In this document: in pieces, positions 2,134 to 27,616 of the stretch | Position numbering within the stretch: the stretch's first letter is position 1 | Layout: each line of letters begins with the position of its first letter | Source: Paracoccus seriniphilus | Lineage (GTDB): Bacteria; Pseudomonadota; Alphaproteobacteria; Rhodobacterales; Rhodobacteraceae | Assembly: GCF_028553745.1 (NCBI RefSeq) | Contig: NZ_CP067130.1 | Coordinates: 496,001-560,000 of the forward strand | Reading direction: 5' to 3' | DNA length: 64,000 bases | The notes under the pieces: model-generated | What the model was told of the DNA's origin: nothing | Seen by the model: only the letters and a program-made list of their open reading frames with translations | The model's database searches: none | Position numbers and translations under genes: made by a program

Positions 2134-2552
2134 CGGCCGGGAAACACAGCCCCTTGCTTCCCTTGGGCGCGCTCGGTCGGACGCTGCAACCCCGAAGCCC
2201 CTGCTGCCGGTCCGGACACGACACGCCATGTCCAGGGTCATTGCCCAGTTTCATGTCGCGGCATCGCGCATCTTTGACAACCGGCGCATGACGACCTGAA
2301 TTCAAGGCCCGAAGCCAGGCCTTATCGCGACAGCTTTCGTGGAAAATGTCCTGTTTTTGACATAATTCATTTCATGATTGACAATCGTCGAAATACTGGC
2401 AGTCTCTGGTTCAAGGCAGGCGGCCCCGATCGGGTCGCCTTGCGGGAGGAGACAGGTCATGAGGGACAACCGGCGCCAGATCGCTCGGCTGTTCCGGCGC
2501 GCATTACGCCATGGGTCGCTCTGCCTTTCGCATGGACAACGGAGCGACTGGA
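2134..2552 (+). promoter_or_regulatory. Leader region with candidate promoter of the Dha/ABC operon
   Basis: This 419-bp gap holds no convincing gene. A candidate sigma70 promoter has TTGACA at 2357-2362, a 17-bp spacer and GACAAT at 2380-2385. A second TTGACA (2378-2383) overlaps that -10 but lacks a good -10 of its own. AT-rich sequence around the promoter (2360-2385) contrasts with the GC-rich flanks and is where a SorC-type regulator would be expected to bind. No terminator with a T-tract is visible after the LysR gene. ATGs at 2511 and 2532 are in frame with DhaKL but lack a good ribosome-binding site. Confidence 0.4.
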
Positions 2553-4289
2553 ATGCAGCGATTCTTCAATGACGCCGACGACATCGTGGATGAAACGGTC
2601 GCCGGTTTCGCACGGGCCCACAGCGATCTGGTTCGGATCGATCCCGGCAATCCGCGCGTCATTGTCTCGAAAGCAGCAGGACAGGCGGGCCGGGTCGGCA
2701 TCGTCACCGGGGGCGGCTCGGGCCATGAACCGGCCTTTATCGGCTATGCCGGTCGCAATCTGGTCGATGCGGTGGCCGTGGGAGAGTTGTTCTCATCCCC
2801 GACAGCGGCCAGCTTTGCCGATGCCATCCGGGCGGCCGATGGCGGCGCGGGCGTGGCGGTGCTTTATGGCAACTATGCCGGGGACAACATGAATGTCCTG
2901 CTGGCGCGGGGAACGGTGGAGGCCGAAGGCATCGAGGTCGCCACGGTGGTCGCCAATGACGATGTCTGCTCCGCCGGACCCGACGAACGCGCCAAGCGAC
3001 GCGGCGTTGCTGGCGAGATCTTCATGTGGAAAATCGGCGGCGCGCGTGCGGCCAAAGGTGGAACGCTGGAGGAGGTCAGGGCCTCGGCCCAGAAGGCGAT
3101 CGACGCCTGTCGCTCGGTCGGGGTCGGCCTTGGCCCCTGCACCCTGCCTGCCGTCGGTCACCCGAATTTCCTGATCGGGCCGGGCGACATGGAGATCGGC
3201 ATCGGACATCACGGTGAACCGGGGACCCGCGTCGAGCCGCTGAAACCCGCCAATGCCGTGGCGCTGGACATGCTGGATATCGTACTGGGGGATCAAGACC
3301 TGCAACAGGGAAGCGAGGTCGCGGTTCTGGTGTCGGGACTGGGGGCCACACCGCTCAACGAACTGTATGTCCTTTATGCGAAGATCGAATCCACTCTTAC
3401 GGAAAGGGGCATCAAGGTCCACAAGGCACTGGTCGGCAATTACTTCACCTCGCTGGAAATGGTCGGCGCGACGCTGACGATCATGGCGCTGGACGAAGAG
3501 CTGAAAGAGCTGCTGGATCTGGAAGCCCAGGCTCCGGGCCTGACCTGCGGACAGACCCCGAGCCCCGCCATGGAGGCCACGACCCGCTTTGTGCGCAAGC
3601 CCGCGAAACAGACTGCGACGACCAGCGTCACTGCCAAGACCGGCCCCATCCATGGGCCTTCGGTGCCCGTGGCCGGCAATGCTGTCATCGTGGAACAGCT
3701 GGCGCAGGCCATTGTCGCCAACAAGGCCTATCTGTCCGAAATCGACGGGCTGATCGGCGATGGCGATCACGGTGTCAACATGGCCAAGGGCTTTGGCCGC
3801 GCCGCGGAACGTCTGGCCGGGCAGGATCTGCCGCTGGATGAGGCGCTTTCGGTTCTGTCGAATGTCCTGATGACCGAGATCGGCGGCTCGATGGGTCCGC
3901 TCTACGGGTTCATGTTCCAGGGAATGGCCGAAGCCACCGCCGGCCGAAAGGCGATTGATGCCGAAGGTTTTTCGGAACTGCTGAATGCCGCCCTGGCAGG
4001 CGTGCGCCGCACAAGCTCGGCCCAGCCGGGTGACAAGACATTGATGGATACCTTGCTGCCGGCGGTCGAGGCATATGATTCCGCCAAGTCCATGGGGTTC
4101 CGCCCTGCCCTTGTCGCCATGCGACAGGCCGCGGAAACGGGCCGCGACAGCACGATGGATCTGGTCGCAAGGATCGGCCGCGCAAGCCGTCTGGGAGAAC
4201 GCTCGCGCGGTGTGCTGGATGCGGGGGCGACCTCTTGCTGCCTGATCCTGACGACATTCGCTACAGCACTGGAAACCCAAATTGCCTGA
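2553..4289 (+). CDS. Dihydroxyacetone-kinase-type DhaK-DhaL fusion
   Basis: A 578-residue single-chain ATP-dependent kinase of the dihydroxyacetone kinase family. DhaK domain: residues 1-330, with GGGSGHEP (His58), Gly-Asp111-Asn-Met-Asn and Gly-His-His220-Gly-Glu-Pro-Gly; His220 matches the histidine that binds the ketone substrate covalently. A linker (about 335-370) leads to DhaL, whose Mg-ATP motif supplies Asp398, Asp403 and Asp405. Length matches Citrobacter-type DHA kinases. The start at ATG 2553 is preceded by GGAG at 8 bases and gives the standard Asn-Asp-Ala-Asp-Asp opening. It is first in an operon with a second DhaL, a SorC-DhaK fusion and a sugar importer. DHA is the family substrate, but related DAK enzymes phosphorylate erythrulose, so a tetrulose is a serious alternative. 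Confidence 0.9.
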   Translation: MQRFFNDADDIVDETVAGFARAHSDLVRIDPGNPRVIVSKAAGQAGRVGIVTGGGSGHEPAFIGYAGRNLVDAVAVGELFSSPTAASFADAIRAADGGAGVAVLYGNYAGDNMNVLLARGTVEAEGIEVATVVANDDVCSAGPDERAKRRGVAGEIFMWKIGGARAAKGGTLEEVRASAQKAIDACRSVGVGLGPCTLPAVGHPNFLIGPGDMEIGIGHHGEPGTRVEPLKPANAVALDMLDIVLGDQDLQQGSEVAVLVSGLGATPLNELYVLYAKIESTLTERGIKVHKALVGNYFTSLEMVGATLTIMALDEELKELLDLEAQAPGLTCGQTPSPAMEATTRFVRKPAKQTATTSVTAKTGPIHGPSVPVAGNAVIVEQLAQAIVANKAYLSEIDGLIGDGDHGVNMAKGFGRAAERLAGQDLPLDEALSVLSNVLMTEIGGSMGPLYGFMFQGMAEATAGRKAIDAEGFSELLNAALAGVRRTSSAQPGDKTLMDTLLPAVEAYDSAKSMGFRPALVAMRQAAETGRDSTMDLVARIGRASRLGERSRGVLDAGATSCCLILTTFATALETQIA

Positions 4290-4302: not shown

Positions 4303-4965
4303 ATGCGTCCGCTTGCGGCCGCAGATCTGACCGATCTGTTCCGCCTGATGGCGGCACGCATTGACGCCGAACGTCTGGCGCTGGGGGCGCTGGATGGCGC
4401 CATCGGGGATGCCGATCATGGCAACTCGATGGCCGAGGGGTTCAGTGCCCTTGCACATGCCTGCGCCGAGGCCGAAAGCCGGGGCGTCGCGACGGGCGAT
4501 CTGTTTGCAATTGCCGCACATGCCTTTCTGGGCGCGGTCGGCGCGACCACAGGGCCGCTTTACGCAAGTGCCTTTCTTCAGGCCGGGCAACGATTTGCCG
4601 GACAGGTGACCATCGATCCGGTGGATCTGACCGAGATCCTGGGTGATTTCTCGGAGGCAATCGCACAGCGCGGCAAGGCCAGCCCGGGCGACAAGACCAT
4701 GCTGGATGTCTGGACCCCCGCGGCCCGTGCCGTCGCCGAGGCGCGCAGCAAGGGCTCGGGCGCGATTGCCCGTCTGGACGCTGCGGTTGCCGCCGCCATC
4801 GAAGGGCGCGAGGCCACGCGCGCCATGGTCGCCGCCGCTGGCCGCGCCGCAAGGCTTGGACCGCGCACATTGGGCCATGTCGATCCCGGCGCGGCCTCGG
4901 CCGCGATCATCATCGTTGCCCTGCGCGATGGCATGACCGCCTTTTTTGCAAGAGGGTCAAAATGA
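4303..4965 (+). CDS. dhaL: Stand-alone DhaL domain protein
   Basis: A 220-residue DhaL nucleotide-binding subunit. Its metal-nucleotide motif carries Asp31, Asp36 and Asp38 in the DxxxxDxD pattern, followed by His-Gly-Asn-Ser-Met. The C-terminal helices contain the family Gly-Asp-Lys-Thr-Met-Leu-Asp and Asp-Pro-Gly-Ala motifs. ATG 4303 with AAGG 9 bases upstream is preferred over a TTG at 4282 that overlaps the DhaKL stop. The stop overlaps the next gene as ATGA. Since the next gene carries a DhaK domain without DhaL, the simplest reading is that these two form the second DhaK/DhaL pair of the operon. The phosphate donor could be ATP; no EI/HPr/DhaM-like PTS protein is seen nearby. Confidence 0.87.
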   Translation: MRPLAAADLTDLFRLMAARIDAERLALGALDGAIGDADHGNSMAEGFSALAHACAEAESRGVATGDLFAIAAHAFLGAVGATTGPLYASAFLQAGQRFAGQVTIDPVDLTEILGDFSEAIAQRGKASPGDKTMLDVWTPAARAVAEARSKGSGAIARLDAAVAAAIEGREATRAMVAAAGRAARLGPRTLGHVDPGAASAAIIIVALRDGMTAFFARGSK

Positions 4966-7031
4966 CGCCCCGCCGCGAGACAGCCAAGGCCCAGGACGGC
5001 GTTCTGACCGAAATGCCGATGCGCTTCGGGGAAGACCCGCTGCTCTGGGCGGCATGGCTTTACTATGAAGACGGCATGACCCAGGGCGATATCGCCAAGA
5101 AGATGGGCCTGTCGCGCGCTTCGGTGAACGCCTATCTGGCCGACGCCCGCACCCGTGGCCTGGTGAATATCGAGATCGAGCCCGACAGGTTCCGCGCCGT
5201 CTCTATCGCGGTCGCGCTGAAAGAGCGTTTTGATCTGCAGGACTGTCTTGTCATTCCCAGCGAGGGCGGCGAGCGCAGCCTGACCGAACGACTGGGGGCA
5301 GCCGGGGCTCAGGCCCTGCGTCGCGTCATGCGGCCCGGCGACACGCTGGCGGTGACATGGGGGCGCACGGTGCTTGCGGTCGCGGATGCGCTGAGCCATC
5401 CGGGGCTGGACGATCTGCGCGTCGTTCAGGCGACCGGTTCCACCACCGCGCGGATTCCCTGGACGCCCGAAACCTGCGCCTCGCGCATTGCCCAGGCACT
5501 TCATGCAAGCTGGGTGCCCATTTCGGCCCCGGCCATCGTCTCGGATCCGGCGTTGCGCCGGGATCTGTTGAATCAGCCGCTGCTTGCGGAACAGGTCGCG
5601 GTTCTGGCCGAGGCCAACCGCATCCTGATGGGCGTGTCCTCGATGCGGCCCGAAAGCACCATCCACACCAGCGGCTTCCTGGACAGCGCCGACCACCATC
5701 GCGACTATCCCGATGCCGTGGCAAGCATCGTCGGGCGCCTTGTCTCGGCACGCGGCGCCGCCGTCACCGGGCCGGTGAACGACCGCACCATCGGCATCGA
5801 CCTTGAAGCCCTGCGACGCATCCCCCAGCGCATCGCCGTCGCGGGGGGCATCGACAAGATCGCGGCCATTCTTGCCGTTCTGCGCGGGCGCTTTGCCAAT
5901 GTTCTGGTCACCGACGCCGCCACGGCACGCGGCATCCTCAAGGCCGATGGCTGGCAGGAAAGCCCGCGCCGTCCGGCCCTGGCCAGCGCAACGCCGGGCA
6001 GCGCACAGATCCGCAGCCATGCCAAGAAACTGTTCAATGCGCCCCAGGATGCGGTCGACGAAAGCCTGGCCGGGGCGCTGACTGCGCATGGCGCGATCAT
6101 TGGCCCGGTGCCGGAAACCTCACGCGCTGTCATGGCGCTGGACGGCCCGCGCGAGGGCAAGGTCGGCATCGTCATCGGCGGCGGTTCCGGGCATGAGCCG
6201 GGCTTCTGGGGCTATGTCGGCAAGGGCTGCGCGGATGCGGCAGTCATCGGCAATATCTTTGCCGCCCCGCCCCCCGGCCCGATCCTTGCCGCCAGCCGCG
6301 CCGTGAATCGCGGCGCGGGCCTGCTGTATATCTACGGCAATTTCTCGGGCGATGTGATGAATTTCGACATGGCGGCCGAGATGGCCGGCGCCGAGGGGGT
6401 CGAGGTGCGCTCGGTCGTCACCACGGATGACATCGCCTCGTCCCCGCCCGATGCACGCGGGTCGCGGCGCGGCGTTGCGGGCAATGTCTTTGTCTTCAAG
6501 ATCGCCGGAGCCGCCGCCGATATGGGTGCCTCGCTGTCCGAATGCGAGGCGATTACCCGTCGCGCGGCGGCGCGCGTCTATACCATGGGGCTGGCGCTTG
6601 AACCCGCGCGCCTGCCCGATACCCGCCAGCCCAGTTTCGAACTGGGGCCGGAAGATATGGAACTGGGCGTGGGCGTGCATGGCGAGCCGGGCATGGTGCG
6701 TCACAAACTGGTGCCCGCCGATGACGCAGCAGACATGCTGTTGGATCGCATCCTGCAAGAGATGAATCCCGCGCGCGGCGACAAGGTGGCGGTGCTGGTC
6801 AATTCCCTGGGCGGAACACCGGCGATGGAGCTCTACATCCTGACCCGCCGTATTGGCCAGCGGCTGCGCGCCAAGGGCATCATCCTGCACCGCACCTTGG
6901 TCGGACCCTATTACACCTCGCTGGACATGGAGGGCGTGTCCCTGACGCTGCTGCATCTGGACGACGAACTGGTGACCTATCTGGATCATCCCTGCCAAAG
7001 CGCGGCGCTGACAATCACGGCCCGGCCATGA
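4962..7031 (+). CDS. SorC-type regulator fused to DhaK domain
   Basis: A 689-residue two-part protein. Residues about 30-75 form a helix-turn-helix (Gly-Met-Thr-Gln-Gly-Asp-Ile-Ala-Lys-Lys-Met). Residues about 85-330 are a SorC/DeoR-like sugar-binding domain with Thr-Trp-Gly-Arg, Ala-Thr-Gly-Ser and a final Ala-Val-Ala-Gly-Gly. Residues about 357-689 are a complete DhaK domain with GGGSGHEP (His411), Gly-Asp464-Val-Met-Asn-Phe and Val-His573-Gly-Glu-Pro-Gly, so every substrate-contacting residue known from DhaK is kept. The reading frame is continuous. The DhaL just upstream overlaps its start (ATGA). It is likely the operon's regulator and perhaps also a kinase subunit; DhaK/DhaL are known co-regulators of DhaR in E. 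coli, giving precedent for such coupling. Which activity is real is unknown. Confidence 0.88.
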   Translation: MTPRRETAKAQDGVLTEMPMRFGEDPLLWAAWLYYEDGMTQGDIAKKMGLSRASVNAYLADARTRGLVNIEIEPDRFRAVSIAVALKERFDLQDCLVIPSEGGERSLTERLGAAGAQALRRVMRPGDTLAVTWGRTVLAVADALSHPGLDDLRVVQATGSTTARIPWTPETCASRIAQALHASWVPISAPAIVSDPALRRDLLNQPLLAEQVAVLAEANRILMGVSSMRPESTIHTSGFLDSADHHRDYPDAVASIVGRLVSARGAAVTGPVNDRTIGIDLEALRRIPQRIAVAGGIDKIAAILAVLRGRFANVLVTDAATARGILKADGWQESPRRPALASATPGSAQIRSHAKKLFNAPQDAVDESLAGALTAHGAIIGPVPETSRAVMALDGPREGKVGIVIGGGSGHEPGFWGYVGKGCADAAVIGNIFAAPPPGPILAASRAVNRGAGLLYIYGNFSGDVMNFDMAAEMAGAEGVEVRSVVTTDDIASSPPDARGSRRGVAGNVFVFKIAGAAADMGASLSECEAITRRAAARVYTMGLALEPARLPDTRQPSFELGPEDMELGVGVHGEPGMVRHKLVPADDAADMLLDRILQEMNPARGDKVAVLVNSLGGTPAMELYILTRRIGQRLRAKGIILHRTLVGPYYTSLDMEGVSLTLLHLDDELVTYLDHPCQSAALTITARP

Positions 7032-7136
7032 CCCCGAACCGCGTGAAGGCAACACTCTTCCAGAAAGGCGAATGTGCCTCTTTGGGCATCGTCACAGGCC
7101 ACCGAGCCGCCAGAAGGACCGCAAGAAAGGCGCGAC

Positions 7137-8120
7137 ATGCGTAACGGAACGGAAAGACAGGCAGTTTTCCTTGCCCTGATCAATGTCGTCGTGCTGGCAA
7201 CCGGCGCGGTGCTGGCCGGTGCGAATTTTGTCGACAGCTATAACCTGCAGATCATGGCCGCGCAGGTGCCGGAACTGGGCCTTCTGGCCCTGGGCGTGGC
7301 GCTGGCGATGATATCGGGCAATGGCGGGATCGACCTGTCGGGGATCGCCCTGGCCAATCTGGCCAGTATCCTGGCCTATCTGGCGATCAGCCGAATGATC
7401 GACCCCGCCGCGGCACCGCTGGCATTCACCTGGGTCTTTGCCGTCACCGCCATCGCCGTGGGCGTGGCAGGCGGATTGCTGAACGGGCTGGTGATCGCCT
7501 ATGCCGGGCTGACGCCGCTGATCGCCACTCTGGGCAGCCAGCTGGTATTCACCGGCATTGCGGTCTGGCTGACCGGCGGCTCGGCCGTTGGCCTGGGTTA
7601 TATCCCGCCGCTGGACAATCTGGGCAACCTGCCGGTTCTGGGCGTGCCACTGTGCTTTGCGCTGTTCATTCTTGTCGCGGCACTGCTTGGCTTTGTGCTG
7701 CGCGTGACACCCTTCGGGATCAAGCTGACGCTGATGGGCTCGAATGACAAGGCGGCGCGCTATGGCGGCATTCCGACCCGGAAAATGATCGTGCTGACCT
7801 ATACGATCGCCGGGGTTCTGGCCTCGATTGCCGGAGTCATCATCGCAGCGCGCAACTCTTCAGTGAAATGGGATTATGGCAGCTCTTACGTGCTGATCGC
7901 CATCCTGATCGCGGTTCTGGCTGGTGTGCGCCCCGAGGGCGGCCATGGGCGCGTGCTGTCCGTCGTGCTGGCGGCAACCGCCCTGCAAATGCTGTCCAGC
8001 CTGTTCAATTTCATGGGCATCTCGAATTTCTTTCGCGACCTCGCATGGGGCGTGTTGCTGCTGGCGCTGCTGGCATCGGCACGCATCCAGATCTCGCCCT
8101 GGTTGCGAATGCGACGGTAA
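7137..8120 (+). CDS. Sugar ABC transporter permease (RbsC type)
   Basis: A 327-residue hydrophobic inner-membrane protein of the ribose/AI-2 permease family, with about nine or ten transmembrane helices and the conserved cytoplasmic Gly-Ser-Asn-Asp-Lys-Ala-Ala-Arg-Tyr-Gly-Gly-Ile segment near residue 202. ATG 7137 is preceded by GAAAGG at 6 bases; a GTG at 7074 would add a hydrophilic leader not seen in the family. It pairs with the permease at 10859, the ATPase at 9276 and the binding protein at 8199. Two different permeases suggest a heterodimeric channel as in Lsr-type systems. Substrate is unknown; the operon's kinases imply a short-chain or branched sugar or polyol. Confidence 0.88.
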   Translation: MRNGTERQAVFLALINVVVLATGAVLAGANFVDSYNLQIMAAQVPELGLLALGVALAMISGNGGIDLSGIALANLASILAYLAISRMIDPAAAPLAFTWVFAVTAIAVGVAGGLLNGLVIAYAGLTPLIATLGSQLVFTGIAVWLTGGSAVGLGYIPPLDNLGNLPVLGVPLCFALFILVAALLGFVLRVTPFGIKLTLMGSNDKAARYGGIPTRKMIVLTYTIAGVLASIAGVIIAARNSSVKWDYGSSYVLIAILIAVLAGVRPEGGHGRVLSVVLAATALQMLSSLFNFMGISNFFRDLAWGVLLLALLASARIQISPWLRMRR

Positions 8121-8198: not shown

Positions 8199-9200
8199 AT
8201 GAAGAAAATTACTCAACTGGCTGGAAGTGCAGCATTCTGTGCATCATTGGTCGCAGGTGCCGCCATGGCACAGGACGCGCAAAGCATCAGCACCGTGGTG
8301 AAGGTCACCGGCGAAAACTGGTTCATCCGCATGAATGAAGGCGTGGACCAGTTCAACGCCGACAATGAGGCCATCGAGGCCGCTCAGGTCGGGCCCGCCC
8401 AGGCCGACGCCGCCCAGCAGGCGCGCATCATCGAGGATCTGGTTGCCCGTGGCGTCTCGGCGATTGCCGTGGTGCCGATGGACCCCTCGGCGCTGGAAGG
8501 TGTGCTGCGGCGCGCCAAGCAACGCGGGATCAAGGTCATCGCCCATGAAGGCGACAGCATCGTCAATGCCGATGCCGATATCGAAGCCTTCGACAATGCC
8601 GCCTTCGGCACGAAGATCAACGAAGGGCTGGCCGATTGCATGGGCGGCGAAGGCAAATGGACCAGCTTCGTCGGATCTCTGGGCAGCCTGACCCATAACC
8701 AATGGGTCGAAGCGGGCGCGGAAAATGCCGGCAGCAAATATCCCGGCATGGAACTGGTCGCTGAAAAGAACGAATCCTTCAACGACGCCAACCGGGCCTA
8801 TGAGCGCGCCAAGGAAATCCTGCGCGCCCATCCCGACATCAAGGGCTTTCAGGGCTCGTCGGCGATCGACGTGATCGGCATCGGCCGCGCAGTCGAGGAA
8901 GCCGGACTGGAAGACAAGACATGCGTCTTCGGACTGGGTCTGCCGAAGGACACCGGACCCTATCTGGAAACCGGCGCCGTGGACCGGATCTATTTCTGGG
9001 ATCCCAAGGATGCGGGCTATGTCATGAATGTCGTGTCGAAGATGATCCTTGACGGCACCGAGATCACCAATGGCATGGATCTGGGCGTGCCCGGCTATAA
9101 CGAAGTCACAGTCAGCGACGGGCCGGGCAAGGGCATTATCATTCAGGGTCAGGCCTGGGTGGATGTCGGCAAGGACGATTACGCCGAATATCCGTTCTGA
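8199..9200 (+). CDS. Periplasmic sugar-binding protein (RhaS/LsrB-like)
   Basis: A 333-residue substrate-binding protein with a clear Sec signal (positive Met-Lys-Lys start, hydrophobic core, Ala-Met-Ala-Gln cleavage near 24/25). Two Rossmann-like lobes follow; motifs such as Val-Val-Pro-Met-Asp-Pro near 90 and Phe-Trp-Asp-Pro-Lys-Asp-Ala-Gly near 267 fit the rhamnose/AI-2 binding-protein branch. ATG 8199 has a strong GGAGGAGG-like ribosome-binding site 8 bases upstream; the 24-residue upstream extension is not signal-like. A strong hairpin follows the gene (9220-9244), the usual means of raising binding-protein mRNA over transporter mRNA. It is the specificity component for the importer. Confidence 0.9.
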   Translation: MKKITQLAGSAAFCASLVAGAAMAQDAQSISTVVKVTGENWFIRMNEGVDQFNADNEAIEAAQVGPAQADAAQQARIIEDLVARGVSAIAVVPMDPSALEGVLRRAKQRGIKVIAHEGDSIVNADADIEAFDNAAFGTKINEGLADCMGGEGKWTSFVGSLGSLTHNQWVEAGAENAGSKYPGMELVAEKNESFNDANRAYERAKEILRAHPDIKGFQGSSAIDVIGIGRAVEEAGLEDKTCVFGLGLPKDTGPYLETGAVDRIYFWDPKDAGYVMNVVSKMILDGTEITNGMDLGVPGYNEVTVSDGPGKGIIIQGQAWVDVGKDDYAEYPF

Positions 9201-9219
9201 TCCGCGTCTTGACTGATGG

Positions 9220-9244
9220 AAGGCGCGGGCAGACCCCGCGCCTT
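9220..9244 (+). terminator. Intra-operon hairpin after binding-protein gene
   Basis: AAGGCGCGG (9220-9228) pairs perfectly with CCGCGCCTT (9236-9244) around a 7-base loop, 19 bases after the binding-protein stop and 31 bases before the ATPase start. There is no T-tract, so partial termination or 3' mRNA protection is more likely than a full stop. This fits high expression of the binding protein relative to ATPase and permease. Confidence 0.6.
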
Positions 9245-9275
9245 TCAGGAACCACCCGGTTCAAGGAACCCTGCC

Positions 9276-10862
9276 ATGACCACCCCATCGACTCCCCCCG
9301 CCCACGGGCAGGACACAGCGCCCTTTCTCGAGGTTCTGAACATCCGCAAGTCCTTTGGCGGGGTGCAGGCGCTCAGGGATGTCAGCCTGCAACTGCGGGC
9401 GGGCCAGATTTCCCATCTGATGGGCGAAAACGGCTGCGGCAAGTCAACGCTGATCAAGATCATTTCCGGGGCACAACCCGCGACCGAGGGCAAGATGCTG
9501 ATCGACGGACAGCCTGTGGGCAGCCTTGCGGGTGATCTGGGGCCGATTGGCGCATTGAGGGCGGGGATCGAGACCGTCTATCAGGATCTGTCGCTGCTGC
9601 CCAATCTGACCGTTGCCGAAAATGTCGCGCTGACGGGCCAGCTTGTGGCGGCAAACGGTCGCCTTGCGCGGCCCCTGCGACTGGCCGCGCTGCATGCCAA
9701 GGCGGCGCAGGCGCTGGCCCATGTGCATCTGCCGACAGATCGCGGCTTTCTTGACCAGCGCACCGACACGCTTCCCCTTGCCAGCCGTCAGCTTGTGGCC
9801 ATCGCCCGCGCCATCGCCGCCGAGGCGCGTCTGGTGATCATGGACGAGCCGACAACCTCGCTGACACGGCATGAGGTGGAAAACCTGCTGGGCGTGGTGC
9901 GCGGCCTGCTGGATCGCAATGTCAGCATCCTGTTCGTCACCCACAAGCTGGACGAGATCAAATCCCTGGGCGGGCGGGCGATCATCATGCGCGATGGCGC
10001 CATCGTGGCCGAGCGTGACGTGCGCAGCACCAGCAAATCCGAGATCGGCGAATTGATGACCGGGCGCAAGATATCGGAAGAACGCTATCGCAATCACCCC
10101 AGGATCGGTGATGTCCGGCTGGAGGTGTCCGACCTGTCGGCGGCGGCGTTCCATGATGTTTCGCTTCAGCTTCGCAAGGGCGAGATCCTTGGCATTACCG
10201 GCCTGCTGGACTCGGGGCGAAACGAACTGGCGCTGGCGCTGTCCGGCGTGCAGCCTGCCGCCTCGGGCCGCATCTCTCTGGACGGAGATCCCGTCGCCCT
10301 GCCGACGCCTGCCGCCGCCATCGCCGAGGGCATCGGCTATGTGCCCGAAGACCGTTTGACGGAAGGGCTGTTTCTGGAGAAATCCATTCAGGACAATGTC
10401 ACCCTGCCGGTGCTGGACAGGCTGCGCAACGCATTGGGCATGATCAGCCGCGGCAGCGCAAAGCAGCTTGCCGAAGAGCAGATCGCCGATCTTCAGGTGG
10501 TTGCGCCCGATGTCTCGGTTCCGGTGCAATCACTGTCGGGGGGCAACCAGCAACGCGTTCTGATCGGGCGCTGGTTGACGATCAACCCCCGGCTTCTGAT
10601 CCTGCATGGCCCGACCGTCGGGGTCGATGTCGGCTCGAAGGACACCATCTTTCGCATCATCCAGCGGCTGGCGGACAACGGCATGGCCGTCATCATCATC
10701 TCGGACGATCACCCGGAATTGCTGCAGAATTGCGACCGGATTCTGGTCATGCGGCAGGGCCGGGTCGTGGCTGAATGCAGCGCCGGGGAAGTCAGCGAAG
10801 ACGATCTTTACCGCATCATGTCCAGCGATCAGGACGCCACCCTGCAGGAGAACGCGAAATGA
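9276..10862 (+). CDS. Sugar ABC transporter ATPase, two NBDs (RbsA type)
   Basis: A 528-residue tandem ATPase. The first nucleotide-binding domain has Walker A Gly-Glu-Asn-Gly-Cys-Gly-Lys-Ser-Thr (50-58) and Walker B Val-Ile-Met-Asp-Glu-Pro-Thr. The second has a strong signature, Leu-Ser-Gly-Gly-Asn-Gln-Gln-Arg, but a degenerate Walker A (Gly-Leu-Leu-Asp-Ser-Gly-Arg-Asn) and a Walker B reading Ile-Leu-His-Gly-Pro-Thr, so the Asp-Glu pair is lost. A weak second site is common in this family, but His-Gly is unusual. ATG 9276 is chosen for the leader AAGGA; the stop overlaps the next permease as ATGA. It energises import through the permeases at 7137 and 10859. Confidence 0.9.
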   Translation: MTTPSTPPAHGQDTAPFLEVLNIRKSFGGVQALRDVSLQLRAGQISHLMGENGCGKSTLIKIISGAQPATEGKMLIDGQPVGSLAGDLGPIGALRAGIETVYQDLSLLPNLTVAENVALTGQLVAANGRLARPLRLAALHAKAAQALAHVHLPTDRGFLDQRTDTLPLASRQLVAIARAIAAEARLVIMDEPTTSLTRHEVENLLGVVRGLLDRNVSILFVTHKLDEIKSLGGRAIIMRDGAIVAERDVRSTSKSEIGELMTGRKISEERYRNHPRIGDVRLEVSDLSAAAFHDVSLQLRKGEILGITGLLDSGRNELALALSGVQPAASGRISLDGDPVALPTPAAAIAEGIGYVPEDRLTEGLFLEKSIQDNVTLPVLDRLRNALGMISRGSAKQLAEEQIADLQVVAPDVSVPVQSLSGGNQQRVLIGRWLTINPRLLILHGPTVGVDVGSKDTIFRIIQRLADNGMAVIIISDDHPELLQNCDRILVMRQGRVVAECSAGEVSEDDLYRIMSSDQDATLQENAK

Positions 10863-11875
10863 GCGATGTCGCCACTTTGAACAAGCGCGGTCTGGCGGCG
10901 CGTTTCTGGGACTTGCTTGGCAAACGCCCCGAGCTGTTCACCCTGACGCTGGTTCTGCTGACCATCATGGTTGTCGCAATCGCCAATCCGGCCTTCCTGT
11001 CGATGAACAACCTGTTCGACATCCTGCGGGCCTCGGTCGTGCCGGGGATATTCGCCATGGGCGTGCTGGTGGTTCTGGCCGCAGGTGGCATTGATGTCAG
11101 CTTCACGGCCATTGCCGCCCTTGTCATGTATTCGCTGACCATGCTGGCCACGAACAGCTTTCCCGGCATGCCTCTTTGGGTGATGCTGCCCGCAGCTGCC
11201 ATCGGTGGCGCGGTGCTGGGGCTGGGCAATGGCCTGCTGGTGCATGTCCTGCGCGCGCCCTCGCTGATCGTGACCATCGGCACGCAATATATCATCCGTA
11301 GCTTTCTGCTGACCTTCGTGGGCACGGCGCTGTTCATGAATATCCCTGCCGCCCTGGACGGGTTCGGCAGGGCATCGCTGATCACGCATCACGGCGCGAC
11401 CGGCATGACCTCCAGCCTGCCTGCTACGGTTCTGGTCCTGCTGGCCGTGGCGCTTGCGACCTGGCTCATCCTGCAGCGGACCCTGATGGGGCGCGCCGTG
11501 TTTGCAGCAGGCGGCAATCCCGACATCGCGGCAAGGCTGGGCTTCAACCTGTTTCATGTCCGGCTGTTCGTCTTTGCCTGGGCCGGGATGCTGGCCGGGA
11601 TCGCGGGCATCGTGCATGTCTCATCGAACCGGCTGGCAAACCCCTTCGACCTTGCGGGGATGGAGCTTGAAATCATCGCAGCCGTCGTATTGGGGGGCGC
11701 ACGGATCACCGGTGGCTCGGGCACCGTGATCGGAACCCTGCTTGGCGTGCTGCTGATCACGCTGGTCAGCAATGTGCTGGTCTTCGTGGGTATTCCCAGC
11801 ACCCTTCAGCGCACCATCATCGGAGCATTCATCCTGTTGGCGGGCACGGCCTTCGCCCTGCGCAACCGCAGCTGA
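10859..11875 (+). CDS. Sugar ABC transporter permease (RbsC type)
   Basis: A 338-residue second permease of the ribose-type family, with about nine or ten transmembrane helices, the cytoplasmic Ala-Ala-Gly-Gly-Asn-Pro-Asp-Ile-Ala-Ala-Arg-Leu-Gly segment and a conserved Ile-Ala-Ala-Val-Val-Leu-Gly-Gly-Ala stretch near the C-terminus. It starts at ATG 10859 inside the ATPase stop. It is clearly different from the permease at 7137, so the channel is probably a heterodimer. It is followed after 22 bases by the PfkB kinase. Confidence 0.88.
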   Translation: MSDVATLNKRGLAARFWDLLGKRPELFTLTLVLLTIMVVAIANPAFLSMNNLFDILRASVVPGIFAMGVLVVLAAGGIDVSFTAIAALVMYSLTMLATNSFPGMPLWVMLPAAAIGGAVLGLGNGLLVHVLRAPSLIVTIGTQYIIRSFLLTFVGTALFMNIPAALDGFGRASLITHHGATGMTSSLPATVLVLLAVALATWLILQRTLMGRAVFAAGGNPDIAARLGFNLFHVRLFVFAWAGMLAGIAGIVHVSSNRLANPFDLAGMELEIIAAVVLGGARITGGSGTVIGTLLGVLLITLVSNVLVFVGIPSTLQRTIIGAFILLAGTAFALRNRS

Positions 11876-11897
11876 CACCATATCCCCGGAGGAACCC

Positions 11898-13972
<2,075 letters not shown>

Positions 13973-13992
13973 GCCCGAACCGCCCCGTGATC

Positions 13993-14012
13993 CGCCCCCA
14001 TGCGCGGGGGCG
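13993..14012 (+). terminator. GC-rich hairpin after bluB
   Basis: CGCCCCC (13993-13999) pairs with GGGGGCG (14006-14012) in the spacer between bluB and the que leader. No T-tract follows, so it is either a Rho-assisted stop or part of the leader fold. Confidence 0.4.
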
Positions 14013-14055
14013 ATGCCACTTGCAATCCGCGCGGTTTCTGAAATAAGGCCCGCCA

Positions 14056-14090
14056 TCCGGTCGCAGCCTACCCGGACATCAAAACAAGGG
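14056..14090 (+). promoter_or_regulatory. preQ1-I-like riboswitch upstream of queC
   Basis: A short H-type pseudoknot matching preQ1 class I: stem TCCGG (14056-14060) / CCGGA (14072-14076), loop TCGCAGCCTAC with the conserved CGCA-N-CCT element, then an A-rich tail ending AAGG. Loop CCT can pair with tail AGG (14087-14089), and that tail is also the ribosome-binding site of queC, 9 bases before its ATG. Ligand binding would therefore hide the ribosome-binding site. The location before a complete queCDEF operon strongly supports it; the tail lacks the usual CTAAGG and has ACAAGG. Confidence 0.78.
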
Positions 14091-14098
14091 CCTCAAAA

Positions 14099-14800
14099 AT
14101 GAAAACACTTGTCATCTGCTCGGGCGGACTCGATTCCGTGTCGCTTGCGCATATTACCGCCAATGAGCATCAACTCACACGGCTTGTCTCGTTCGATTAT
14201 GGTCAGCGCCACCGCAAGGAGCTTGGCTTCGCCCAGGCGGCGGCCGCGCGGTTGGGCGTGCCCTTTCACCTGATCGACATGCGCGGCATCGGTGCGGCGC
14301 TGTCGGGTTCGGCCCTGACCGACGAAATCGACGTTCCTGATGGGCATTATGCCGAGGAAACGATGCGCATTACCGTCGTGCCCAACCGCAATGCCATCAT
14401 GCTGTCGATCGGCTTTGGCATCGCGGCGGCGCAGGGTGACGAGGCCGTGGCGACGGCGGTGCATGGCGGCGATCACTTCATCTATCCCGATTGCCGCCCC
14501 GGCTTCACCCGCGCCTTCGAGGCGATGCAGCAGGCCGCCCTGCAAGGCTATGCCGATGTGCGGCTGCACACGCCTTTCGTCAGGGAAAGCAAGGCCGAAA
14601 TCGTCCGCCAGGGCGCGGCGCATGGCACGCCATTTGCCGAGACATGGTCCTGCTACAAGGGCGGCGAAATCCACTGCGGCCGCTGCGGCACCTGTGTCGA
14701 GCGACGCGAGGCCTTCCATCTGGCCGGGGTCAGCGACCCGACGCCCTATGCCGATCCCGACTACTGGATCACGGCGCTTACCACGCGGGAGAACGGCTGA
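14099..14800 (+). CDS. queC: 7-cyano-7-deazaguanine (preQ0) synthase
   Basis: A 233-residue QueC that converts 7-carboxy-7-deazaguanine to preQ0 with ammonia and ATP. The PP-loop Ser-Gly-Gly-Leu-Asp-Ser lies at residues 8-13, and a zinc site near the C-terminus is formed by Cys-Tyr-Lys-Gly-Gly-Glu-Ile-His-Cys-Gly-Arg-Cys-Gly-Thr-Cys. ATG 14099 sits 9 bases after AAGG, inside the riboswitch tail. The stop overlaps queD as TGATG. It is the first gene of queC-D-E-F. Confidence 0.96.
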   Translation: MKTLVICSGGLDSVSLAHITANEHQLTRLVSFDYGQRHRKELGFAQAAAARLGVPFHLIDMRGIGAALSGSALTDEIDVPDGHYAEETMRITVVPNRNAIMLSIGFGIAAAQGDEAVATAVHGGDHFIYPDCRPGFTRAFEAMQQAALQGYADVRLHTPFVRESKAEIVRQGAAHGTPFAETWSCYKGGEIHCGRCGTCVERREAFHLAGVSDPTPYADPDYWITALTTRENG

Positions 14801-15153
14801 TGTTCCGTATTCGCAAGGAGTTCCATTTCTCGGCCAGCCATCGCCTGAGCCATCTGCCCGACGACCATCAATGCGCGCGGCTGCATGGACACAATTACAT
14901 CGTCGTGGTCGAACTGGCCGCAAAGGCGCTGAACCCGGATGGCTTCGTGCGCGATTATCACGACCTCAAGCCGCTCAAGACCCATATCGATGATCATTTC
15001 GATCACCGGCATCTGAACGATGTGCTTGAAGGCCCCTCGACCGCCGAGAACCTGGCGAGACACTTCTTTGACTGGTGCGCCGCGCGCTGGCCTGAGACCA
15101 GCGCCGTATTGGTCAGCGAGACCCCCAAGACATGGGCGGAATACCGGCCATGA
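14800..15153 (+). CDS. queD: 6-carboxy-5,6,7,8-tetrahydropterin synthase
   Basis: A 117-residue QueD (PTPS family) making 6-carboxytetrahydropterin from dihydroneopterin triphosphate. Zinc histidines are in Phe-Ser-Ala-Ser-His-Arg and Leu-His-Gly-His-Asn-Tyr, with the catalytic Cys four residues before that second motif (Gln-Cys-Ala-Arg-Leu-His). The Glu-Thr-Pro-Lys-Thr-Trp-Ala-Glu-Tyr end is typical. Coupled on both sides: its start overlaps the queC stop, and its stop overlaps queE. Confidence 0.95.
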
Positions 15154-15857
15154 CCCTGCGCATCGCCGAGATTTTCGGCCCCACCATCCAAGGCGAAGGC
15201 GCGCTGATCGGGGAACCCACCGTCTTTGTCCGCGCGGGGGGCTGTGACTATCGCTGCAGTTGGTGCGACAGCCTTCATGCGGTAGAAAGCAAATACCGCC
15301 ATGACTGGGCGAAGATGACGACCGAGACCGTCTGGAAGAAGGTGCGCGAACTTTCGCGCGACCGGCCGCTGACGGTTTCGCTGTCCGGGGGCAACCCGGC
15401 CATACAGGACTTTGGCCCGTTGATCAGCATGGGCAAGGCGGCAAACTATCGTTTCGCCTGCGAGACTCAGGGTTCTATCGCGCGCCAATGGTTTGCCCAG
15501 CTTGATACGCTGGTGCTGTCTCCGAAACCGCCATCGAGCGGTGAGCGGGTGGATTGGGACGCCTTTGACGCCTGCCGTGACATTGGCCGCAAGGCGCGTC
15601 AGCAGGTGTTGAAGATCGTGATCTTTGACGAGGTCGATTACCAATGGGCGCGAGAGGTTCACGCCAGGCACAGCGATCTTGCCCTGTTTCTGCAGCCCGG
15701 CAACCCCGTGGTCGACCCCGATATCGCTGTCGACCCGCAATCGCTGGCCGATCGCCTTGGCTGGCTGACCGAAATGGCGATGACCGATGGATGGTTCGCC
15801 CCGCGTATTCTGCCGCAACTGCATGTCCTGATCTGGGGCAACAAGCGCGGCGTCTGA
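15150..15857 (+). CDS. queE: 7-carboxy-7-deazaguanine synthase (radical SAM)
   Basis: A 235-residue radical-SAM enzyme that contracts the pterin ring to 7-carboxy-7-deazaguanine. The iron-sulfur motif is Cys-Asp-Tyr-Arg-Cys-Ser-Trp-Cys (CxxxCxxC) near residue 32, preceded by the QueE hallmark [15 protein letters not shown] is the SAM-binding Gly motif. ATG 15150 overlaps the queD stop (ATGA) and fits the family N-terminus better than an ATG 18 bases upstream. Confidence 0.95.
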
Positions 15858-18566: not shown

Positions 18567-18582
18567 ATATTTCATGAAATAT
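18567..18582. promoter_or_regulatory. Proximal ArsR operator, overlaps start codon
   Basis: ATATTTCATGAAATAT is a perfect 16-bp palindrome that runs into the ATG of the arsR-arsC fusion (ATG 18581). A TTGGCG about 17 bases upstream (18545-18550) could be the -35 element with the -10 inside the palindrome (TATTTC at 18568). If so, the transcript would be leaderless or nearly so, and the bound repressor would cover the -10 and start site. Confidence 0.65.
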
Positions 18583-19414
18583 GGAAAACAAGATTCCCGA
18601 CCAGCTGTCCTCCCTTGGCCATCCGCAGCGATTGGCTGTCTTTCGCCTGCTGATGCGCCGTTACCCCGACCGCGTTCCCGCGGGGGAAATCGCCATCGCG
18701 CTTGGTGTCAAGGCAAGCACCATGTCCAGCTATCTGTCCGTGCTGATGCGGGACAACCTGGTGCAACAACAACGGTCAGGCACGTCGATCCTGTATTGGA
18801 TCAACATGACCACGGTTCAACGATTGTTCGGCTATCTGTTCAACGATTGCTGTCGTGGCCGGCCCGACCTCTGCATGCCCTCCGGCACGTCAGCCGCTCA
18901 CATGCCTGGTCGCAGGTATGACGTTCTCTTCATCTGCGTCGGCAATTCCGCGCGGTCGATCTTTGCCGAGTCGATCCTGCGCAAGACTGCGGGCGAGCGA
19001 TTCAACGCCTATTCCGCCGGAACCCGACCCGCGTCGCGGCTCAACCCCTTTGCCATGCAGATCCTGCAAGACAAGGGCCACGACATTTCGGTCCTGCGTT
19101 CCAAGAACATCTCTGAGTTCTCTGGCCCTGATGCCCCGCATTTCGATTTCGTCTTCACGGTGTGCGATCAGGCCGCCAATGAAGAATGCCCTGCCTGGGA
19201 AGGCCAGCCCGTCTCGGGTCATTGGGGAATCCCCGATCCGGCCAGGGCAACCGGGAATGATGCCCAGAAGGCGCTGGCCTTTCACCGGGCCTACCGTGCG
19301 CTTGAACATCGCATCGGTCTTTTCACCGCACTCAACCTGGAAAGGTTGAACCGCATCGCCATACAGAATTCGGTCGACGATATCGGCCGCACCAACCCCG
19401 AGGGACAAATATGA
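18581..19414 (+). CDS. ArsR repressor fused to ArsC/LMW-phosphatase domain
   Basis: A 277-residue fusion. Residues 1-85 are an ArsR/SmtB winged helix. Residues 90-97 read Cys90-Cys91-x5-Cys97, the spacing of the As(III) site at Cys95-Cys96-Cys102 in the Acidithiobacillus-type ArsR. Residues about 112-245 are a low-molecular-weight phosphatase/arsenate reductase domain with the P-loop Cys119-Val-Gly-Asn-Ser-Ala-Arg125-Ser and a downstream Cys-x7-Cys pair (Thr-Val-Cys-Asp, then Glu-Glu-Cys-Pro) typical of thiol-coupled ArsC. Similar HTH-ArsC fusions occur in related bacteria. The stop overlaps the GAPDH gene (ATGA). It should repress the operon and, if catalytic, reduce arsenate to the arsenite that relieves repression. 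Operator copies lie at 18529 and 18567. Confidence 0.9.
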
Positions 19415-20409
19415 CCACATACGCATTGAACGGCCTTGGCCGTATGGGAAAGCTGGCCCTGAAGCCACTTCTGGAACGCGGGGCCAGGATCGCCTGGATC
19501 AACGATGCGGTCGGTGATCCGGAAATGCATGCCCATTTGCTGGAGTTCGACACGGTGCACGGGCGCTGGAACGCCGCCTTTTCGCATGATGACGAAAGCG
19601 TCACCATCGACGGCACGCGCCTGCCCTTCATCGGCTCCAGGGCGATTGCCGATCTGCCACTTGATGGTGTCGATGTGGTCATCGACTGCACCGGCGTCTT
19701 CAAGACCGAAGCCCGGATCGCGCCCTATTTCGAAGCGGGCGTGAAGAAGGTCGTGGTGTCCGCCCCGGTCAAGGACGGCAACGCGGTCAACATTGTCTAC
19801 GGCGTCAACAACGAAACCTATGATCCCGCCAGTCATCGTATCGTGACCGCGGCCTCATGCACCACCAACTGCCTTGCCCCTGTGGTAAAGGTCATCCACG
19901 AGACTTTCGGCATCAAGCACGGCTCGATCACCACGATTCATGACGTTACCAACACCCAGACCATCGTCGACCGTCCCGCCAAGGACCTGCGGCGTGCCCG
20001 CTCGGCCCTGAATTCACTGATCCCGACGACGACCGGATCGGCCAGCGCGATCACGCTGATCTATCCCGAACTGAAGGGGCGATTGAACGGCCATGCCGTC
20101 CGGGTTCCGCTGTTGAACGCTTCGCTGACCGACTGCGTCTTCGAACTGCGGCGTGAAACCACGGCAGAGGAGGTCAATGCCGCTTTCGAGGCGGCTGCCA
20201 ACGGGGCGCTGAAAGGCATCCTTGGCTATGAGACACGCCCGCTGGTCTCGACCGATTATACCAATGATCCGCGCTCTTCGATCATCGACGCGCCTTCGAC
20301 GATGGTGGTCAATGGCACGCAACTGAAGGTCTATGCCTGGTACGACAATGAATGGGGCTATGCCAACCGGCTGGTCGATGTGGCGCTGATGGTCGGGGCC
20401 TCGCTGTGA
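19411..20409 (+). CDS. ArsJ-associated glyceraldehyde-3-phosphate dehydrogenase
   Basis: A 332-residue GAPDH with the catalytic Cys150 in Ala-Ser-Cys-Thr-Thr-Asn-Cys and His in Thr-Ile-His-Asp-Val-Thr-Asn. In ars operons with arsJ this enzyme uses arsenate in place of phosphate to make 1-arseno-3-phosphoglycerate, which ArsJ exports (known for Pseudomonas). It overlaps the genes on both sides by ATGA and GTGA, so it is translated with them. The N-terminal nucleotide fold reads Ala-Leu-Asn-Gly-Leu-Gly-Arg-Met-Gly. A glycolytic role is not excluded but the context makes detoxification the likely job. Confidence 0.92.
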
Positions 20410-21683
20410 GCAAGACCGTGCGGGAACGACCCGAGGGAACCTCGGCCTATATCGCGGTGACCGCGGCCTATTGGGCCTTCATGCTGACCGATGGCGCGCT
20501 GCGGATGCTGGTGCTGCTGCATTTCCACACATTGGGCTTCAGCCCCGTGCAACTGGCCTATCTTTTCATTCTCTACGAATTGGCGGGGATGATCACAAAT
20601 CTGGCCGCCGGCTGGATCGCGGTTCGCTTCGGTCTGACCTCGACGCTTTACGCCGGGCTGGGATTGCAGGTATTGGCCTTGCTGGCCCTGAGCCAGCTTG
20701 ATCCCGGCTGGAGCATCGCGGCCTCGGTCGCCTTCGTCATGTCTGTGCAGGGCCTCTCGGGCGTCGCCAAGGATCTTGCCAAGATGTCCGCGAAATCTGC
20801 GGTAAAGCTGCTTGCGCCGTCAGGCGACGGGGGGCTGTTTCGCTGGGTGGCCGTCCTGACCGGATCAAAGAACGCGGTGAAGGGCATCGGCTTCCTGCTG
20901 GGCGCGGTCCTGCTGGGGGCGCTTGGCTTCGATTGGGCCGTTCTGGCAATGGCCCTTGTTCTGGGGGTGATCCTTGTCGCCGTGGTGCTGTTCATGCCCG
21001 CGGGCCTGCCCAGGGGCCGGAAAGGCACCAAGTTTTCCGAAGTGTTCTCGAAATCGGCCAATGTCAACTGGCTGTCCGCGGCGCGGGTTTTCCTGTTCGG
21101 CGCGCGCGACGTCTGGTTCGTGGTCGGCATCCCGATCTACTTCTACGCAGTGCTTTCGGACGGCACTGACCAAGGCAACCGCACGGCCTTCTTCATGATC
21201 GGCACCTTCATGGCGGTCTGGATCATGCTTTACGGCGTGGTGCAGGCCAGCGCCCCAAGGATCCTGCGCGCCGCTGTCCGGCCCGAGGCAGAGTTGATCC
21301 GCGCAGCGCGCAACTGGGCCTTTGCACTGTTCGCCGTGCCTGCCGCGCTGACGTTGGCCGTTTCCCTGTCGTCAACACCCCAGACCTGGCTGACCGTGAC
21401 GCTGGTTCTGGGCCTGTTGGTTTTCGGCGCGCTCTTTGCGGTGAATTCCTCGCTCCATTCCTATCTGATCCTCGCTTTCTCGCAGACTGAACGGGTCACG
21501 ATGGATGTGGGCTTTTACTACATGGCCAACGCCGGGGGTCGCCTGATCGGCACGCTTCTGTCCGGTCTGACCTATCAGATCGGCGGTTTGACCCTTGTCA
21601 TGGGCACGGCCGCGATCATGGTCTTGCTGGCGGCCATGACCTCGGGTCGTCTGAGCGATCCGGCGAAAGAAGCGACGGCATGA
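20406..21683 (+). CDS. arsJ: Organoarsenical efflux MFS transporter
   Basis: A 425-residue major-facilitator protein with about 12 transmembrane helices. It follows the arsenate-using GAPDH directly, which is the defining arsJ context; ArsJ extrudes 1-arseno-3-phosphoglycerate, which then hydrolyses to arsenate outside. GTG 20406 overlaps the GAPDH stop (GTGA). The early [13 protein letters not shown] segment is typical of the family. No ACR3, ArsB, ArsH or ArsM gene is in the window, so this is the only arsenic exporter seen here. Confidence 0.92.
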
Positions 21684-21741
21684 TCATCCCCGGACGCCGG
21701 CCGACCGTCAGGGCCGGGTCTGGATTTCCGCCCGGAGAAGA

Positions 21742-21771
21742 ATGCCCGCCCCCTCTTTCGGGGACGGGCAT
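21742..21771. terminator. Hairpin between convergent arsJ and aioA
   Basis: ATGCCCG (21742-21748) pairs with CGGGCAT (21765-21771), with further C/G pairing inside (CCCC with GGGG) and a TCTTT loop. It sits in the 101-bp spacer of two convergent genes, so it can serve both. No T-tract. Confidence 0.55.
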
Positions 21772-21784
21772 CCGATGTCCGAGG

Positions 21785-24250: not shown

Positions 24251-24263
24251 GTGTCTCTCTCCC

Positions 24264-27613: not shown

Positions 27614-27616
27614 GTG

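What the first reader, a model, noticed from the sequence alone, without database searches (positions are those of the whole stretch)
4962..7031. SorC-type regulator fused to an intact DhaK kinase domain
One unbroken frame joins an HTH and SorC effector domain (1-330) to a full DhaK domain (357-689) with His411, Asp464 and His573 intact. Since DhaK binds its ketone substrate covalently and DhaK/DhaL act as co-regulators in E. coli, the fusion could read sugar, kinase state or DhaL:ADP and control the operon, while also being a kinase subunit with the adjacent DhaL.
Basis: partly seen in the sequence, partly recalled or inferred. Interest (0 to 1): 0.82.

Follow-up and report, generated by a model that had tools for sequence, protein, structure and literature searches.

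The report
Sugar-operon repressor fused to kinase subunit
One bacterial protein joins a DNA-binding sugar sensor to an intact-looking sugar-kinase subunit, and a matching paired DNA control site lies in front of its own operon, so it probably both switches these genes and helps run the pathway; the fusion already has a database name, but I found no experimental study of it.

Summary
Window 4962-7031 (+) encodes one 689-aa frame: HTH, SorC effector domain and a complete DhaK domain with the three catalytic residues. I collected 51 such fusions; those with named hosts are alphaproteobacteria. RefSeq-type annotation already calls it [quoted passage not shown]; six literature searches aimed at it found no study (open-access library, listing capped).

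New here: (1) catalytic His/Asp/His in 51 of 51 and a separate DhaL gene beside the fusion in 50 of 51, so the kinase half looks active. (2) Paired palindromic half-operators (TTGACAnnTGTCRA type, 20-23, mostly 21, bp apart) in 43 of 51 fusion loci, 0 of 33 loci with unfused sister DhaK and 0 of 51 resampled loci; cross-trained controls hold well for the rhizobial group and less well for the window's group. In the window they lie at 2357-2370 and 2378-2391. (3) One fusion event is not rejected.

Best reading: a SorC-type repressor of its own operon that is also a ketose-kinase subunit. What it senses is untested. New variant of a known kind.

The parts
4962..7031 (+). SorC-DhaK fusion gene, 689 aa
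   Evidence: 51 fusion ORFs
5034..5159 (+). HTH DNA-binding region (residues 25-66); R52 conserved 51 of 51, N56 50 of 51
5196..5942 (+). SorC effector-binding domain (PF04198, residues 79-327); Lys299 51 of 51
5949..6023 (+). linker (residues 330-354); 23-31 residues across the family, mean conservation 0.41
6024..7028 (+). DhaK (Dak1) domain, residues 355-689, with His411, Asp464 and His573
2357..2370 (.). weaker half-operator TTGACATAATTCAT, 21 bp from the strong one; overlaps the -35-like hexamer
2378..2391 (.). strong half-operator TTGACAATCGTCGA; overlaps the -10-like hexamer; best match in the 64 kb window
2357..2385 (+). the one sigma-70-like promoter match in 2130-2620 (TTGACA-17-GACAAT); a consensus match only
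2511..4289 (+). DhaK1-DhaL1 two-domain kinase (NF011049), first operon gene; the true start may be further in, near 2553
4303..4965 (+). separate DhaL2 (TIGR02365), overlaps the fusion start by 4 bp; probable partner of the fused DhaK
7074..8120 (+). ABC permease (BPD_transp_2)
8199..9200 (+). periplasmic sugar-binding protein, RhaS/LsrB-like (ORF from 8127)
9216..10862 (+). sugar ABC ATPase (start uncertain)
10775..11875 (+). second ABC permease (start uncertain)
11772..12851 (+). PfkB-type sugar kinase (start uncertain, probably near 11892)

Best explanation
The protein is a local SorC/DeoR-subfamily repressor of its own operon that is also the substrate-binding subunit of a second ketose kinase. 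As a tetramer its HTH dimers bind two 14-bp palindromes 21 bp apart over the operon promoter and block transcription (location inferred from footprints; repression inferred from overlap with a promoter-like match and family precedent). Its DhaK half binds a short ketose (DHA or a tetrulose such as erythrulose) and, with DhaL2 and ATP, phosphorylates it (inferred from conserved residues and partner gene). Most likely the SorC pocket then binds the resulting ketose phosphate, loosening the tetramer and inducing transporter and kinases. Shown here: the fused domains, conserved residues, partner gene and operator pattern. Inferred: DNA binding, catalysis, ligand, and any signal between the halves.
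For: His411, Asp464 and His573 in 51 of 51 fusions. Separate DhaL2 adjacent in 50 of 51: L047 has none, and L027 shows only a 46-bit stub at a contig end. DhaL2 Asp31/36/38 in 52 of 52 rows (51 ORFs, two each from L038 and L043, plus the window sequence again as reference). In L057 tblastn finds no DhaK1 or DhaL1 in 22 kb, but fusion plus DhaL2 remain. Operator: TTGACA-N2-TGTCAA with at most 2 mismatches in 36 of 44 upstream regions, mean 0.33 in three shuffled sets. In 41 hand-chosen sites the partner at +21 is 6.1 SD above other offsets, next 3.1 SD at -7. Pairs in 43 of 51 fusion loci, 0 of 33 unfused loci and 0 of 51 resampled loci; 41 of those 43 best pairs lie within 450 bp of a labelled gene start, L038 and L043 3.7-3.8 kb off. 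Trained on the 17 loci with DhaL2 before the fusion (11 sites), pairs appear in 34 of 34 others against 2 of 33 unfused at threshold 16, and 33 of 34 against 0 of 33 at 20. With a matrix built without the window and L001, the 2357/2378 pair scores 26.5 and the next pair in 64 kb 1.2. TTGACANNNGTCRA occurs twice in the 4.26-Mb genome, one being this site. In L051 and L053 the only pair fronts an opposite-strand run with transporter, dehydrogenase, DhaK1 and DhaL1, suggesting action in trans. Precedent: DeoR and CggR bind two half-operators as tetramers, and CggR is released by FBP and by DHAP, the product of DHA kinase (PMC11229326; abstract, Introduction and passages). No DhaM in the genome, which suggests ATP rather than PEP.
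Against: No binding, kinase or ligand data exist. The matrix was trained on 41 of the same loci, none of them unfused, and the dyad was picked from 3,215 candidates. The reverse cross-test is weaker: trained on the other 34 loci, pairs appear in only 7 of 17 of the window's group at threshold 16 (0 of 33 unfused; L024 and L027 of the 17 are contig ends). Single sites at up to 2 mismatches occur somewhere in 46 of 51 fusion loci but also in 18 of 33 unfused loci, in one of these (L074) near a DhaK start, so a single site proves little. 8 of 51 loci lack a pair at the threshold: L024 and L027 are contig ends, L028 and L058 have sub-threshold pairs, L022, L046, L054 and L063 single sites. Another regulator could own the motif. 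The DeoR Schiff-base lysine is not kept (Thr158 in 47 of 51; role recalled). Relative placement of the halves is uncertain (pTM 0.54), so cross-talk is unsupported by structure.
Confidence: 0.6

Rival explanations
1. The DhaK half is mainly a sensor, as DhaQ is for DhaS in L. lactis or DhaK/DhaL for DhaR in E. coli: covalently bound ketose or docking of DhaL sets the DNA-binding state, and the other kinase of the operon does the catalysis.
For: Solved precedents exist: the DhaR(N)-DhaK complex and the DhaQ co-activator are among the best structural matches. Another DhaK gene is present in 48 of 51 loci, 46 of them of the DhaK1 clade, and could serve as the catabolic kinase.
Against: Catalytic triad 51 of 51 and a conserved DhaL2; the DhaK domain scores higher with the DhaK model (361 bits) than with the DhaQ model (246 bits), though below both cut-offs.
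Confidence: 0.22
2. Two independent functions on one chain: an ordinary SorC repressor and an ordinary DhaK, joined for co-expression or stoichiometry without signalling between them.
For: The linker is low-confidence in the model and poorly conserved; the model does not fix domain placement (pTM 0.54).
Against: One origin with persistence in 51 ORFs is not rejected, and linker length stays at 23-31 residues; neither proves cross-talk.
Confidence: 0.3
3. The operator belongs to another regulator (in the window, the LysR gene at 1183-2133) and the fused HTH is vestigial.
For: A LysR gene lies directly upstream in the window.
Against: A match to that LysR at 100 bits or more is in 1 of 51 loci, the window itself; L060 has a weaker, distant one. 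The fused HTH is the most conserved segment (0.82), and no pair is seen in the 33 unfused loci with the full matrix.
Confidence: 0.05
4. The window's operon is an lsr-like signal-uptake system (AI-2 or similar) with a DhaK-type kinase in place of LsrK.
For: The SorC half matches LsrR; the binding protein matches LsrB models and chains.
Against: The binding protein is far closer to 5bra (250 bits) than to any LsrB chain (94 bits at best), and 37 of 51 loci carry a DthD-like dehydrogenase at 100 bits or more somewhere in the locus, though the window does not.
Confidence: 0.05

Closest known systems
RefSeq/PLSDB 'bifunctional sugar-binding transcriptional regulator/dihydroxyacetone kinase subunit DhaK'
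   Same: Same architecture and same family; named so in Roseibium, Labrenzia, Thalassospira, Aureimonas, Sinorhizobium and Shinella plasmid records.
   Different: A name only: no NCBIfam model of the whole fusion matched and no paper was found.
SorC/DeoR-subfamily repressors (B. subtilis DeoR, E. coli LsrR, K. pneumoniae SorC; CggR for the effector domain)
   Same: HTH plus effector domain, two half-operators, operator over a promoter-like site (PMC11229326).
   Different: A typical member is HTH plus effector domain only (PMC11229326 Introduction); this one carries a DhaK domain. DeoR half-site is TTGAACAAAATTCAA, here TTGACAnnTGTCRA.
E. coli DhaR with DhaK/DhaL
   Same: DHA-kinase subunits linked to control of their own operon; DhaR(N)-DhaK complex solved.
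   Different: There DhaR is a separate protein and the kinase is PEP-dependent with DhaM (PMC6643234, passages); here the regulator is a fused SorC protein and no DhaM is found. The opposing roles of DhaK and DhaL at DhaR are recalled.
L. lactis DhaQ-DhaS
   Same: A DhaK paralogue serving in regulation (2iu4 title).
   Different: DhaQ is a separate protein paired with a TetR-type regulator (recalled); this domain keeps the catalytic set and a DhaL partner.
LsrK-LsrR logic
   Same: A kinase makes the phosphorylated inducer of a SorC-type repressor (4l5i title names phospho-AI-2; logic recalled).
   Different: Separate proteins there; one chain here, if the model is right.

Membership tests
SorC-family transcriptional regulator | SorC effector (sugar-binding) domain PF04198 | tested here: met
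   E 6.5e-59, 199.7 bits against cut-off 27
SorC-family transcriptional regulator | N-terminal homeodomain-like HTH of the SorC/DeoR subfamily | tested here: met
   Alignments to full-length LsrR (from residue 12), DeoR (from 28) and SorC (from 30); model helices 26-35, 41-48, 52-64
SorC-family transcriptional regulator | binds an operator of two half-sites near the promoter of the regulated operon | tested here: inconclusive
   The operator pattern is there (43 of 51 loci; window 2357/2378), but binding by this protein was not tested
SorC-family transcriptional regulator | tetramer on DNA, released by a sugar phosphate | not testable with these tools
   Needs purified protein; Lys299 is 51 of 51
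DhaK, substrate-binding subunit of DHA kinase | Dak1 domain PF02733 over its length | tested here: met
DhaK, substrate-binding subunit of DHA kinase | His56, Asp109 and His218 (E. coli numbering) | tested here: met
   His411, Asp464, His573; 51 of 51 fusions
DhaK, substrate-binding subunit of DHA kinase | curated NCBIfam equivalog cut-off (TIGR02363) | tested here: not met
   361.3 bits against 406.25, so it is not filed as that equivalog, only as a Dak1-domain protein; the substrate may differ from DHA
DhaK, substrate-binding subunit of DHA kinase | DhaL partner subunit | tested here: met
   DhaL2 at 4303-4965, 161.7 bits against 138.3; 50 of 51 loci. Partnership itself inferred
DhaK, substrate-binding subunit of DHA kinase | phosphorylation of DHA or another ketose | not testable with these tools
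   Needs an assay
DhaQ co-activator | TIGR02362 cut-off | tested here: not met
   246.1 bits against 413.25
PEP-dependent DhaKLM kinase | DhaM (TIGR02364) in the genome | tested here: not met
   0 matches in own genome; E. coli, L. lactis and H. volcanii controls ring

The most novel reading that the evidence does not exclude
A self-feeding kinase-repressor: one chain on which an active ketose-kinase subunit makes, with DhaL2, the sugar phosphate that its own SorC domain reads to release the operon. Flux through the kinase, not substrate concentration, would then set transcription, and DhaL2 or ATP supply would gate induction.
Probability: 0.3. Interest if true: 0.75.

Novelty: new variant of a known kind. 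Interest (0 to 1): 0.55.

Why it matters
DHA-kinase subunits acting as regulators is known from separate proteins. Here regulator and kinase subunit are one chain, with the features of both activities conserved across 51 fusions from Rhodobacterales, Hyphomicrobiales and Thalassospira. With a candidate operator now located, the open question of whether such a trigger enzyme reads substrate, product or partner subunit becomes a simple experiment, including in S. meliloti 1021, which carries the fusion on pSymB. It would also help assign tetrulose and polyol pathways.

Tried and rejected
Considered and rejected: chance or frameshift join (51 fusion ORFs); degenerate DhaK half (triad 51 of 51); LysR at 1183-2133 as the common regulator; a second fusion type in L072 and L097 (their 540/541-aa genes proved to be DhaK-DhaL two-domain kinases); L065 as an unfused exception inside the fused clade (its match begins at the contig end).

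Did not help: S. meliloti locus tags SMb20312-20319 (tags recalled) gave no papers; Bachler 2005 (PMC545809) is not held. In the DhaK tree (quick method, warnings of long branches) L057 falls beside, not inside, the fused clade; the AU test does not reject one clade (p 0.72; the held tree scored higher), which does not prove it. In one search I dropped 7 of 51 loci: L003, L032, L056 and L059 as near-duplicates, L024 and L027 as contig ends, L063 as uncertain; start points of 8 further loci were set by hand. One search kept the best 80 of at least 566 relatives, so the fusion set is a sample.

Frequency is uncertain because the genome search scored only the best 2-4 candidates per genome: full-length fusion in 1 of 385 class genomes (26 of 385 had some match at 1e-60), 7 of 394 in the family, 10 of 292 in the order, 5 of 398 in the phylum; own genome counted each time, samples overlapping. 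Families absent from the list are not excluded.

Papers: PMC11229326 abstract, Introduction and passages; PMC6643234 and PMC12780249 passages; all others search listings only.
Full report

SURROUNDINGS. The gene lies in a plus-strand run: DhaK-DhaL two-domain kinase (2511-4289), separate DhaL (4303-4965), the fusion, then a sugar ABC transporter (permease, binding protein, ATPase, permease) and a PfkB kinase ending at 12851. The genome holds 5 Dak1, 5 Dak2 and 6 SorC matches and no DhaM. The even count of DhaK and DhaL fits each DhaK having its own DhaL.

RELATIVES. On plasmid records, 107 of 1047 matching records cover at least 80% of the query in one place, and the annotation already names the fusion in many of the 60 listed. 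A scan of named genomes kept 79 loci, capped at the best 80 hits; 45 of these plus five plasmid loci and the window gave 51 fusion ORFs, near-duplicate strains included. In a phylum-wide sample 5 of 398 genomes had it, none outside the class. The layout is nearly constant: another DhaK and DhaL, the fusion, and DhaL2, with DhaL2 before the fusion in the window's closer relatives and after it in most rhizobia. DhaL2 is beside the fusion in 50 of 51 loci, another DhaK in 48 of 51, 46 of them of the DhaK1 clade. A DthD-like dehydrogenase (100 bits or more, anywhere in the locus) is found in 37 of 51; PLSDB calls it GolD/DthD family in L004 and L005. With the L004 binding protein nearest to 4rsm, 5hko and 4rs3 this suggests polyol or tetritol catabolism; that those entries bind such polyols is recalled. 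The window, Roseibium and Stappia loci lack that dehydrogenase, and the window-type binding protein, RhaS/LsrB-like, is found in 8 of 51 loci, so their substrate may already be a ketose (inference).

IS THE KINASE HALF ALIVE? His411, Asp464 and His573 are identical in 51 of 51 fusions. DhaL2 keeps Asp31, Asp36 and Asp38 in 52 of 52 rows, aligned with E. coli DhaL. L057 (Aurantimonas) keeps fusion and DhaL2 with no other DhaK found in 22 kb. The domain misses the strict NCBIfam DhaK and DhaQ cut-offs but scores nearer to DhaK, so the substrate may not be DHA.

ORIGIN. In a tree of 140 DhaK domains (quick method), the DhaK1 clade has 46 rows (SH-aLRT 100), and fused domains group together (50 fused plus the truncated L065; 97), with L057 beside them and unfused, mostly rhizobial DhaK as nearest relatives. 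One clade for all fused rows is not rejected (AU p 0.72). SorC and DhaK halves show similar identity to the window across the family.

IS THE DNA-BINDING HALF ALIVE? The HTH is the most conserved segment (0.82; effector domain 0.73, DhaK 0.76). A dyad search in 44 upstream regions gave TTGACA-N2-TGTCAA as the best of 3,215 candidates: 36 of 44 regions at up to 2 mismatches, 0.33 on average in shuffles. A second site 21 bp away stands 6.1 SD above other offsets in 41 hand-chosen sites. Pairs at 20-23 bp with summed score of at least 16: 43 of 51 fusion loci, 0 of 33 unfused sister loci, 0 of 51 resampled loci; 41 of the 43 best pairs lie within 450 bp of a labelled gene start. Controls: single sites are common (46 of 51 fusion loci, 18 of 33 unfused loci anywhere in about 20 kb), so the pairing carries the weight. 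Trained on the window's group, the matrix finds pairs in 34 of 34 other fusion loci against 2 of 33 unfused (33 of 34 against 0 of 33 at the stricter threshold 20); trained on those 34 it finds only 7 of 17 in the window's group, with 0 of 33 unfused. For the window itself, a matrix made without the window and L001 ranks 2378 first and 2357 third of 63,987 positions, and their pair scores 26.5 against 1.2 for the next. TTGACANNNGTCRA occurs twice in the genome. The two half-sites overlap the -35-like and -10-like hexamers of the one promoter-like match in 2130-2620, as a repressor would. In L051 and L053 the only pair fronts the opposite-strand run rather than the fusion gene.

PRECEDENT. SorC repressors bind two half-operators as tetramers, half-sites can differ strongly in affinity, and CggR is released by FBP and by DHAP (PMC11229326; abstract, Introduction and passages read). 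DeoR's half-site TTGAACAAAATTCAA resembles the motif here. DHAP is what a DHA kinase makes, so product sensing by the SorC half is chemically natural (inference). E. coli and L. lactis show that DhaK-type proteins can also signal to regulators (PDB titles).

VERDICT. Ordinary as an annotation, unusual as biology: a SorC repressor and a kinase subunit in one chain, both apparently under selection. Candidate operator and partner gene are the new evidence. Sensing mechanism and substrate remain open. Absence from print rests on six searches aimed at the fusion (20 of 45 papers listed) and four on neighbouring topics (20 of 109 listed), in an open-access library only; subscription papers were not searched.

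Noticed in passing
window 18581-28465: Arsenic island: ArsJ-associated GAPDH and ArsJ exporter, arsenite oxidase large and small subunits, then a sigma-54 response regulator, a histidine kinase and a periplasmic binding protein that look like AioR, AioS and AioX (these three names recalled; one search gave no specific model).
   Followed up: partly
window 13235-15857: BluB (5,6-dimethylbenzimidazole synthase), followed by ORFs that look like QueC, QueD and QueE (read by eye).
   Followed up: partly
G000 C3:240040-242518 (L101): An unfused parallel in the same genome: ABC transporter, DhaK-DhaL kinase whose DhaK is 55% identical to the fused one, and a separate convergent SorC gene about 30% identical to the fused SorC.
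   Followed up: partly
L001:14133, L003:7724, L023:7219: Roseibium and Stappia carry a second strong single operator-like site in the gap before the ABC permease gene, which the window lacks.
   Followed up: partly
L069, L076, L078, L083, L090, L094: Mesorhizobium loci with unfused DhaK have a related element (TTGACAATTGCCAG, in 5 of these 6 with a mirror site 19 bp away) before another sugar ABC gene, perhaps the site of a related SorC regulator.
   Followed up: no
L057: Aurantimonas sp. Leaf443 has fusion plus DhaL2 and no other DhaK found in 22 kb, with a weak 21-bp operator pair directly at the fusion ORF start; it may be an early-branching or minimal form.
   Followed up: partly
plasmid records H1, H6, H12: DhaK-DhaL two-domain kinases are annotated there only as 'dihydroxyacetone kinase subunit DhaL', which hides the first kinase of the operon.
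   Followed up: no
L061:1017-2786: A further DhaK-DhaL gene in Aureimonas altamirensis A31 is split by a stop; left as found.
   Followed up: no
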